From positions 24,627,310-24,691,309 of the forward strand of contig NC_049986.1 of the NCBI RefSeq assembly GCF_000003815.2: 64,000 nucleotides of DNA, written 5' to 3'. Below the pieces are notes generated by a model, which worked only from the letters and a program-made list of their open reading frames with translations, did no database searches and was not told the origin of the DNA. The position numbers and the translations under genes are program-made. The DNA is from Branchiostoma floridae (lineage: Eukaryota > Chordata > Leptocardii > Amphioxiformes > Branchiostomatidae). Every line of letters starts with the position of its first letter. Position 1 is the stretch's first letter. Shown one piece after another: positions 21,501-47,130 of this stretch.

Positions 21501-22048
21501 GAAGCCTAATACAATGTACCATTTTAGCATCTCTAAAGCTCCACAATGTGGAAGATATAGGAAACCCTCTTCCACACCACACCCTGCTTGTATGGTCTGA
21601 CTCCACTCCATCACCATGCAAGCTCCCTCATGCATTTTTCCTACCCTGACATTTAAGCCTTCCCCATTCCACATTCCTGCCAAAGGCACCCCATGAAGAC
21701 CCATGCCCATGGTTCTTTTGTACATGTTACTGTTAATCTTGTTATTTCTGCAGCTGCAGGAGAGCAAGACTTTTGTACATGTTACTGTAAATATTGTTAT
21801 TTCTCCTTTAGGATAGCCAGAATTTGTGCATGCTACAGTAAATCTTGTTATTTCTGCTGCAGTGGAGCCAGACTTTAGTACATGTTACTGTAAATATTGT
21901 TATTTCTGCTGCAGGAGAGCCAGACTGCTGAGGTGCCCACCCCCCCAGCACCAGTGAAACCCCCCCAGGAGGAGCAGTGGGCCGTGAACGTTGACATCAG
22001 CACGCCTGTAGCCGACTCCACAAGCGGATCCCCAACCCTGCCTACCAG
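15582..22048 (+). CDS. SKIC2 (SKIV2L): SKI2 exons 1-9: N-terminal region
   Basis: Exons: 15582-15624, 17101-17207, 18866-18972, 19495-19612, 19831-20017, 20191-20265, 20457-20557, 21139-21207, 21915-22048. They encode the non-helicase N terminus that in family members wraps the core and contacts the other SKI subunits. Recognisable blocks are LPHGLPPVL (exon 3), SGELLGYKE (exon 4), LSLRRPPGP and [11 protein letters not shown] (exon 5), an acidic run WSEEEEE (exon 7) and EEQWAVNVD (exon 9). Exon 9 is 134 nt; adding one base near 22016 would make it 135 and would turn the 3' end of its frame into the family-like [11 protein letters not shown] leading into exon 10. Confidence 0.9.
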
Positions 22049-25000
22049 GTCTGACAACTCGGGTTTAGTATGGTTTTAGTTATACCCCCCTCACATTAGG
22101 CGCGATTCGATCGGACGACGAGTCTGCGAGCTCTAATTTACGAGGAGGCATGACCCTGATGCCGACGAAGAAATGGCAGAGTTCCCCCTTCCCGTCAGGG
22201 TCATGTCTCCTCGTAATTTAAAGCTCGCAGACTTGTCGTTCGATCGAATCGCACCTAATGTGAGGGGGGTATTAGGATCTCCATTAGTTACTGATACGTC
22301 ACTATAATGAATCCTCCTGGAGTCCGGGTGAATTGTATGCATTTTCACTTGAGCGAAGTGAGGAAAGTCGTGTAAAGTGCCATTCCCAAGGGCACACGAT
22401 CAGTGGCAAGGCGGGTTTTGAACTCAAGACCTTTTGGGCCTGAGCCTAAAGGGCTGCCAATTGCGCCACGCGATCTCACTGGGTTTCTGATTCTGTTCTC
22501 TTTTCCATTAGAGTACAGAACAGGGTTTGATTCCTAGCTGTGCCCAATAGCACTTTCCTCACTCCACCCAGGTGTAAAATGGGTACCTGACTTTAGTTGG
22601 GGAGGTAAAAGGCAGTGGGAGTTACTTACCATCACCTGGACACAGTGGATAACAACCCAATACTGCCCCGTGTCTATATGATCTTCACCATTTTACCCAC
22701 ATGAACAATAAACACCAAACTTCCCTAAGGGGCTGCAATGCTTTTAAACAAGTGACGAAAGCATTGACCAAGTTAATGACTTTCTTAACTGTGTTGGTAG
22801 AAGTTATTCTGGAACAAATTGAACTGTAACTAATAACTTTCTAGTCCAAAATGTGCTGATAACAACTTGAGTACATTTCACATCAATTTCAGAATTTCTC
22901 TGAGTTTGTTTGTTTGTTTTTAGTGGCCATTTGAGTTGGACGTGTTGAAATCAACTTGACTGCACCTTGTAGCAATTACAGAATTTGTGTGATTATCTTT
23001 GTTTACTTTGTTTGTTTGTTTGTATGTAGTGGCCGTTTGAGCTGGACGTGTTCCAGAAGCAGGCAATTCTGCACCTGGAGAACCACGACAGCGTCTTCGT
23101 GGCCGCGCACACCTCCGCGGGAAAAACCGTGGTGGCCGAGTACGCCATCGCGCTCTCACAGAAACACGTCACCAGGTAACTTTAAGACTTTAAGACTTTG
23201 AGACTTTGTTTGAAAATCCATTGGTGAGGTGCCATAGGGCACGCCACTAATCTTCCTGGACTTCATGACAAAACAAAGACGTACTTCCAAAATATCAAAT
23301 ATTTACATACAATATTTACCTTAGTTTACTTAGTTTGAAGGCGGTGTACAGAAAGTGTGAAATGGAGCAAAATGGAATGAAATGGCACGAACATATATAG
23401 ATACACAGAAAGATTTCTGTACATTCCATTTCGTTCCATTTTGTTACAATTTTCACTTTCTGTACACCCTTTGAGTTTTATTGATGCAACATAGAGTACA
23501 GCAACTTTTTTACAGTCAACTACAAATTGCAAGACTTGCAATATTTAGGAAATAATGCGGCCTGCTATTGGTCTATTCCGATGTAACACAGCCAGCTATT
23601 GGTCCATTCAGATGTAACTCAGCCTGCTAATGGTTCATTAAGATGTAACATAGCCTGCTATTGGTTCATTCTGATTTAATGCAGCCTTCTATTGGTCCAT
23701 TCAGATGTAGTGCTGTCTGCTATTGGTGATGTAACACTGTCTGCTATTGGTTCATTCAAATGTAATGCAGCCTTCTATTGGTCCATTCAGATGTAATGCT
23801 GTCTGCTATTGGTCCCTTCCAGGACAGTTTACACCTCCCCTATCAAGGCCCTGTCCAATCAGAAGTTCCGAGACTTTAAGCAGACGTTTGAAGACGTGGG
23901 GCTGCTGACGGGAGACGTGCAGCTGCGCCCTGAGGCCGCCTGCCTCATCATGACCACAGAGATCCTCAGGTATGTTTCAACCTAATCCTTAATCTTAACC
24001 CTAATCCTAACCCTAAACTCTCATCATGACCACAGAGATCCTCAGGTTTGTTTCAACCTAATCCTTAATCTTAACACTAATCCTAACCCTAAACTCTCAT
24101 CATGACCACAGAGATCCTCAGGTTTGTTTCAACTTAATCCTTAATCTTAACACTAATCCTAACCCTAAACTCTCATCATGACCACAGAGATCCTCAGGTT
24201 TGTTTCAACTTAATCCTTAATCTTAACACTAATCCTAACCCTAAACTCTCATCATGACCACAGAGATCCTCAGGTTTGTTTCAACTTAATCCTTAATCTT
24301 AACACTAATCCTAACCCTAAACTCTCATCATGACCACAGAGATCCTCAGGTTTGTTTCAACTTAATCCTTAATCTTAACACTAATCCTAACTCTAAACCC
24401 TCATCATGACCACAGAGATCCTCAGGTATGTTTCAACCTAAAACTTGACCATAACCCTAACCCTCAACCCTTATCATAGCCACAGAGATCCTCAGGTATG
24501 TTTCAGCCTAATCCTAATCCTAATCCTTACCCTAACTAACCTTGACCCTGACTCTGACCCTTATCATCATCAGCAGAAATCCTCATACCATTCTTGGTAA
24601 AGATGATGAACCCATAAACATTTATCCATAGGAATACATGATGATGATGACATAATCGTATGCGTTCATTCCTTTGGGTCGTTTCATTTGCTTCAAATGT
24701 CTCTTAGATAAGTTAGAAGCAGACAAAGTTGGAGCTGCGCGTGTGCCTGGTCATAACCTGTTCCAGACAACAGGTCCACTGTAGGTATGGGCTCTGCCAG
24801 GCCAGTACTTGTTTGTTTGTTTATTTTGATCTCCATTCAAGTTTACTGTTACAGTTGTTTGTTGACTTGTTAACCTACAGGTCGATGCTGTACAACGGCT
24901 CAGACGTTATCCGCGACCTGGAGTGGGTCATCTTCGACGAGGTCCATTACATCAACGATGCTGAGGTAAGCTAGTCGTGTCCTAAAACACTCAAACATAT

Positions 25001-46557: not shown

Positions 46558-46689
46558 TTCTGACTTGAAGTTTCTCGTATGACTTGAGATAACGGTGGTA
46601 GATCTCCATACAACAGTTTTTTTGTAGGATTAATGTTTGTAAATGATTAACAGCACAGCTTTAGAATACACCAGTTTTGTACAGTAAGA

Positions 46690-47130
46690 ACAATCTGTGT
46701 TTGCCGCTAGCCTCGACACGCAGTAGGGTTAATGTTTGAAAACAGTAAAATATGGCAGCTTTGTATAACACACCTGGTTTTGTGCAGTTAATGATACAAG
46801 CTGCGCTTGCCGCTGCGGAAGGCTCTACACGCAATAGGACTTGTTTGTAAATAGTAAAACAGCACAGCTTTGTAACACACCAATTTTGTACAGCAAGCTG
46901 TGTAGGACCAGACTGTAAGGTTTGACCCACTCGTACCAGAAGATCAAGATTAGACAATGTGTTTGGCACTTAAGAGTCTACACGCGGTAGGATTTGTCAG
47001 TTTTGGCATAACACATCAGCCTTGACATGTACACTAATATAAGTAAAAACTGCATCGGATCAAACTGGTTAAACCACCTCCAGGCAAAACACACCAGAAG
47101 ATCAAACTAGACATTGTGTTTGGCACCATG
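46690..47130 (+). repeat. Decayed tandem copies of the SKI2 final exon tail
   Basis: TTTGCCGCTAGCCTCGACAC with GCAGTAGGGTTAATGTTTG (46699-46738), CTACACGCAATAGGACTTG (46824-46842), CAGAAGATCAAGATTAGACA and CTACACGCGGTAGGATTTG (46937-46995), and AGAAGATCAAACTAGACATT (47097-47118) all echo the end of exon 30 and its stop. Linking sequence (AACAGCACAGCTTTGTAACA) is also repeated. Confidence 0.8.

What the first reader, a model, noticed from the sequence alone, without database searches (positions are those of the whole stretch)
21740..47130. About half of the SKI2 exons are flanked by partial tandem copies of their own splice junctions
Partial copies accompany exons 9, 10, 13, 14, 16, 19, 20, 21, 26 and 30 on the upstream side (exon start, usually with its acceptor) and exons 11, 20, 24, 25 and 28 on the downstream side (exon end plus donor). 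The polarity is strict, and the complete exon always lies at the edge of its array. Repeated tandem duplication across exon-intron borders, followed by array growth, would explain it. It implies that many intron minisatellites are born from coding junctions and that splicing must ignore dozens of decoy sites. I know of no description of one gene with so many.
Basis: seen in the sequence. Interest (0 to 1): 0.85.

Follow-up and report, generated by a model that had tools for sequence, protein, structure and literature searches.

The report
Amphioxus gene full of splice-junction echoes
About half the exons of one lancelet gene sit beside incomplete tandem copies of their own edges, a known but poorly explained lancelet oddity called "mirages" (a like pattern in birds was recently named "exon stuttering"), here unusually dense.

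Summary
Resampled introns give none. The kind is known: tandem duplications of exon-intron borders in amphioxus genes are called "mirages", and birds have "exon stuttering". Strict polarity follows from tandem duplication. What looks new is density and pattern. By the same search, 5 of 116 sampled CCT and kinesin exons carry copies (3 in canonical orientation), against 8 of 24 in MTR4 and 14 of 27 in SKI2. Tandem arrays crossing a junction: SKI2 13 of 19 (3.4 expected), MTR4 7 of 9 (3.6), CCT and kinesins 4 of 27 (5.1). Copy frequency correlates with exon G+C and nearness to a contig end in 25 genes, after the fact; forty random sites showed no end effect. Part of 40.1-45.5 kb is assembly duplication.

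The parts
18860..46357 (+). SKI2/SKIC2 helicase gene, exons e2-e28 as modelled here
   Evidence: tblastn and splice-site model; best PDB hits are 'Superkiller complex protein 2' and 'Helicase SKI2W'; Pfam DEAD, Helicase_C, MTR4_beta-barrel, stalk, DSHCT in the e9-e25 product
21715..21926 (+). e8 acceptor array, about 52-bp unit, 3 partial copies upstream, all with AG
22904..22946 (+). single copy of e9 acceptor (20 nt intron + 23 nt exon)
23944..24534 (+). e10 donor array, 76-bp unit, 7 copies downstream, all with GT
25242..25724 (+). e12 acceptor: one junction copy 83 bp upstream (AG kept) beside a 23-bp intron array
26005..26094 (+). diverged (73%) copy of e13 acceptor
26965..27090 (+). e15 acceptor copy, 156 bp upstream, 80 nt of exon, in frame and open
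30042..30589 (+). e18 acceptor array, about 101-bp unit, 5 copies with AG; 4 of 5 lack 3 codons of the authentic exon
31216..31756 (+). e19 acceptor array; 3 copies with AG, all in frame and stop-free, plus one exon-only copy
31801..33864 (+). e19 donor array, 48/61-bp units, 36 decoy donors, all with GT
33898..34368 (+). e20 acceptor array, about 87-95-bp unit, 4 copies (2 with AG, 2 with AA)
37186..37774 (+). e23 donor copies, 4, from 98% to 70% identity
38090..38187 (+). e24 donor copy, 102 bp downstream
38243..38510 (+). e25 acceptor copies, 3, all with AG
43184..43340 (+). e26 donor array (50/19-bp units), 4 copies, 3 with GT
45846..45896 (+). copy of the start of e28, acceptor AG not kept (GG)
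46696..46730 (+). copy of the stop-codon end of e28; no splice site involved
34524..34598 (-). inverted copy of e17 end plus donor, 4.9 kb from its source
40126..45507 (.). four N gaps with 100% identical duplicated blocks at them: partly assembly duplication, not biology

Best explanation
These are amphioxus 'mirage' minisatellites at unusual density. Step 1 (inferred): a short tandem duplication, typically about 50-160 bp with one breakpoint inside an exon and one in the intron, arises by replication slippage or microhomology-mediated repair. It leaves one intact exon and one partial copy in the intron, so it is nearly neutral. Step 2 (array anatomy shown, process inferred): some duplicates grow into arrays by further duplication and unequal exchange, while older copies decay. 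Step 3 (inferred): the spliceosome keeps using the exon-proximal site. By exon definition the authentic acceptor is the one nearest its donor, and the authentic donor the one nearest its acceptor, so the decoys lie outside the exon although many match the authentic sites in consensus strength. Mis-splicing to most decoys would shift the frame or add a stop. Density differs strongly between genes; a link to local G+C content and recombination is plausible but untested.
For: 15 of 52 exon sides carry copies, none arising in resampled introns. Copy identity runs from 100% to about 70%. Read by eye for three arrays: unit ends show short shared sequence (9 nt GACCGGTAC at e18, GA at e19 donor, TTG at e20). 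49 of 51 donor copies keep GT and 19 of 35 acceptor copies keep AG; their median PWM scores are 12.1 (donor) and 8.6 (acceptor) against 8.25 and 8.09 for authentic sites, with the caveat that authentic sites were scored leave-one-out and decoys were not. 27 of 86 copies lie at multiples of 3, close to one third. Of 21 in-frame decoys with intact sites in e9-e25, 16 contain a stop. Same structures, with RT-PCR evidence of normal splicing, in amphioxus globin genes (PMC3087553); PMC3902484 says the same of Adh and TnC.
Against: No RNA data for SKI2 here. Concerted evolution is not general: of 7 arrays tested only e18 copies are clearly more alike to each other (91.3%) than to the authentic edge (83.1%); for e8, e10 donor, e19 donor and e25 the authentic edge is closer to the copies than they are to each other, and e19 acceptor and e20 are within about 1%. 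The e15, e19 and e20 arrays give 5 in-frame, open decoys, so use of some copies is not excluded. The neutral account does not by itself explain why 13 of 19 arrays cross a junction. One copy is inverted and displaced, which simple tandem duplication does not give.
Confidence: 0.85

Rival explanations
1. Assembly artefact: the copies come from merging two divergent haplotypes or collapsing repeats in a Sanger shotgun assembly.
For: 40.1-45.5 kb contains 100% identical blocks around N gaps. If this is the 2020 B. floridae assembly, it is Sanger data with haplotypes merged by HaploMerger2 (PMC7269912).
Against: 13 of the 15 sides lie in the gap-free stretch up to 40125. Copies differ from the authentic edges by 0-30% and grade in age. 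Haplotype merging would duplicate whole stretches, not only exon edges (inference).
Confidence: 0.06
2. Some copies are functional alternative splice sites or exons, for example the in-frame e19 acceptor array, giving length-variable protein inserts.
For: Three e19 acceptor decoys lie 129, 258 and 369 nt upstream, in frame and stop-free, with PWM scores above the authentic median; e15 and e20 have one open in-frame decoy each.
Against: Only 5 of 21 in-frame decoys with intact sites are open; frame preservation is at chance (27 of 86). Four of 5 e18 decoys lack three codons in the conserved [10 protein letters not shown] stretch.
Confidence: 0.08
3. Junctions are not special: arrays form anywhere in introns at random, and those overlapping an exon edge are simply noticed.
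For: Position by position, 41% of intron positions (1123 of 2739) are locally repeated against 12 of 52 junctions. In CCT and kinesin stretches 4 of 27 arrays cross annotated junctions against 5.1 expected, P 0.80. The stop-codon end of e28 is duplicated without a splice site.
Against: Counted by array, SKI2 has 13 of 19 crossing against 3.4 (0 of 2000 placements reached 13), MTR4 7 of 9 against 3.6 (P 0.019). The excess persists among SKI2 arrays with a pair at 95% identity or more (6 of 9), so slower decay of exon copies is not the whole reason. SKI2 was picked because of its junction arrays; MTR4 was not.
Confidence: 0.3

Closest known systems
Mirage minisatellites of amphioxus (Adh3, BflGb6, BflGb9, PGBD5, TnC)
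   Same: Tandem partial copies of exon-intron borders on 5' and 3' sides, many with intact AG/GT, units about 10-160 bp (PMC3087553, PMC3902484)
   Different: The passages I read report one border in each of two globin genes and two in PGBD5 (Adh3 and TnC papers not seen); SKI2 has 15 affected sides and MTR4 8 of 24 affected exons
Exon (sequence) stuttering on avian dot chromosomes (PMC12954441, 2026)
   Same: Introns holding partial copies of adjacent exon edges including the splice site, 236 introns in 115 chicken genes, linked by its authors to G+C-rich coding sequence
   Different: 190 of 236 introns are on dot microchromosomes, with population length variation. A term search of its main text finds no mirage, lancelet, Branchiostoma or minisatellite, and amphioxus only in a reference title. 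The contig here is 25.6 Mb
Ordinary intronic minisatellites
   Same: Array growth and decay of units
   Different: Here 13 of 19 arrays of 18.8-40.1 kb include coding sequence and a splice junction

Membership tests
[quoted passage not shown]
   15 of 52 sides
Amphioxus mirage minisatellites | Both 5' and 3' exon borders can be affected | tested here: met
   10 acceptor, 5 donor sides
Amphioxus mirage minisatellites | Many but not all copies keep AG/GT | tested here: met
   68 of 86
Amphioxus mirage minisatellites | Cephalochordate genome | tested here: inconclusive
   Assembly 513 Mb in 431 contigs; the 15 of contigs C1-C19 whose length was shown are 17-35 Mb; a 19-chromosome B. floridae assembly exists (PMC7269912). 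No named record was matched
Amphioxus mirage minisatellites | Concerted evolution with the border copy excluded | tested here: inconclusive
   Clear for 1 (e18) of 7 arrays
Amphioxus mirage minisatellites | Normal splicing despite the copies | not testable with these tools
   No RNA data
Amphioxus mirage minisatellites | Length instability between haplotypes or tissues | not testable with these tools
   Only one assembled copy of the locus was at hand
Avian exon stuttering | Partial copies of the adjacent exon edge in its own intron | tested here: met
   33 of 33 acceptor-type up, 47 of 47 donor-side down, one of them the e28 stop end
Avian exon stuttering | Located on dot microchromosomes | tested here: not met
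   Window lies on a 25.6-Mb contig
Avian exon stuttering | Association with G+C-rich coding sequence | tested here: inconclusive
   Over 25 genes rho 0.62, P 0.0009; 0.50, P 0.010 with canonical copies only; 0.41, P 0.050 without SKI2 as well. Explored after the fact

The most novel reading that the evidence does not exclude
Amphioxus mirages and avian exon stuttering are one exon-edge-directed duplication process. In some genomic neighbourhoods (G+C-rich exons, perhaps high meiotic recombination near chromosome ends) tandem duplications are drawn to exon-intron borders, so certain genes, SKI2 and its paralogue MTR4 among them, collect decoy splice sites on a third to half of their exons while genes elsewhere have almost none.
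Probability: 0.27. Interest if true: 0.75.

Novelty: new member of a known kind. Interest (0 to 1): 0.5.

Why it matters
SKI2, with 68 decoy sites that keep AG or GT, would be a natural test of exon definition. Finding a like anatomy in a lancelet and in birds could turn two separately named curiosities into one testable mutational process. If exon G+C or recombination rate predicts it, the cause of mirages, called unclear in 2010 (PMC3087553), becomes measurable. It also warns gene predictors: a JGI gene model annotated PGBD5 repeats as an exon (PMC3902484).

Tried and rejected
Chromosome-end hypothesis: prompted by SKI2 lying 0.92 Mb and MTR4 2.3 Mb from a contig end. In the 24 genes without SKI2, 13 of 51 exons within 6 Mb carry copies against 0 of 89 beyond, but the cut-off was chosen after seeing the data, 8 of the 13 are MTR4 and 2 are non-canonical cct11 copies. 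A fresh test with 20 sites of 600 bp at 1 Mb from ends against 20 central sites found no difference in tandem-repeat cover (0.058 against 0.046, P 0.70); the second measure there (0.058 against 0.031) gave no valid P. Left as unproven.

Limits of the comparison. CCT and kinesin exons come from Pfam matches extended to likely splice sites, so edges may be off and exons outside the domain are missing, which can lower their counts. I used 54 of 60 CCT-family matches (6 lone or long single-exon matches not fetched) and 62 of 134 kinesin matches in 14 fetched loci. Two kinesin matches (C2:31967610, C2:31967761) were dropped as exons because they are the partial copies, and a stop-rich one (C7:14343123) was dropped. 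Against strict polarity: both cct11 copies lie downstream, one acceptor-type and one exon-internal, and MTR4 shows two exon-internal copies and one donor-type copy upstream; the last I explain by 19334-19447 being itself the downstream copy of 19181-19279. MTR4 exons were picked by hand from tblastn hits.

Replication of the correlations failed for want of data: the kinase search returned mostly near-full-length, intron-poor matches and the myosin search returned places only.

A position-wise test argued against a junction hotspot; the array-wise test argued for one. I prefer the second because long arrays dominate the first, but both are given. Arrays merged with a crossing pair count as crossing, which favours the second.

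Literature searches. The founding Adh3 paper and a 2023 amphioxus genome paper are not held; Adh3 is cited from other papers.
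Full report
What was checked. The window is G000:C8:24627310-24691309 of a 513-Mb assembly. I modelled the gene by aligning a human SKI2 protein, recalled from memory, to the window, choosing GT/AG sites by protein fit and correcting edges. A 191-residue query joined from several exons has as best PDB hits Superkiller complex protein 2 (2.2e-104) and Helicase SKI2W (4e-104), with MTR4 at 3.3e-65. Pfam finds DEAD, Helicase_C, MTR4 beta-barrel, stalk and DSHCT domains in the e9-e25 product. 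The model has 27 exons (e2-e28); exon 1 and perhaps one exon between e25 and e26 are missing. The reading frame shifts inside e8, an apparent 1-nt deletion that may be a base error.

Noticed in passing
window 869-4610 and 10281-14029: 3.7-kb direct duplication at 92% identity left of the gene (also 1-460 with 5147-5605, 483-871 with 6152-6540 and 4686-5246 with 14277-14888); no Pfam match at E 0.001 for two ORF pieces tried.
   Followed up: partly
window 22084-22270 and 45895-46097: Two imperfect palindromes of about 190-210 bp, 82% and 78% self-complementary, MITE-like (label from memory); the second sits between the partial e28 copy and e28.
   Followed up: partly
window 34524-34598 (-): Inverted, displaced copy of the e17 end with its donor; not a tandem event, so another duplication route exists.
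   Followed up: no
window 21915-22048: The reading frame shifts inside exon e8, an apparent 1-nt deletion relative to human SKI2; allele or base error.
   Followed up: no
window 31216-31857: Three e19 acceptor decoys are in frame and stop-free, so an RNA using them would encode repeated inserts (the nearest adds 43 residues).
   Followed up: partly
G000:C2:31967610-31968130: A kinesin gene shows the same anatomy: two partial upstream copies of one exon start.
   Followed up: yes
window 49385-58921: The right flank has 8 local-repeat arrays in 47-64 kb against 2 in 1-18 kb, some near an EGF-domain exon; whether they cross exon edges was not tested.
   Followed up: no
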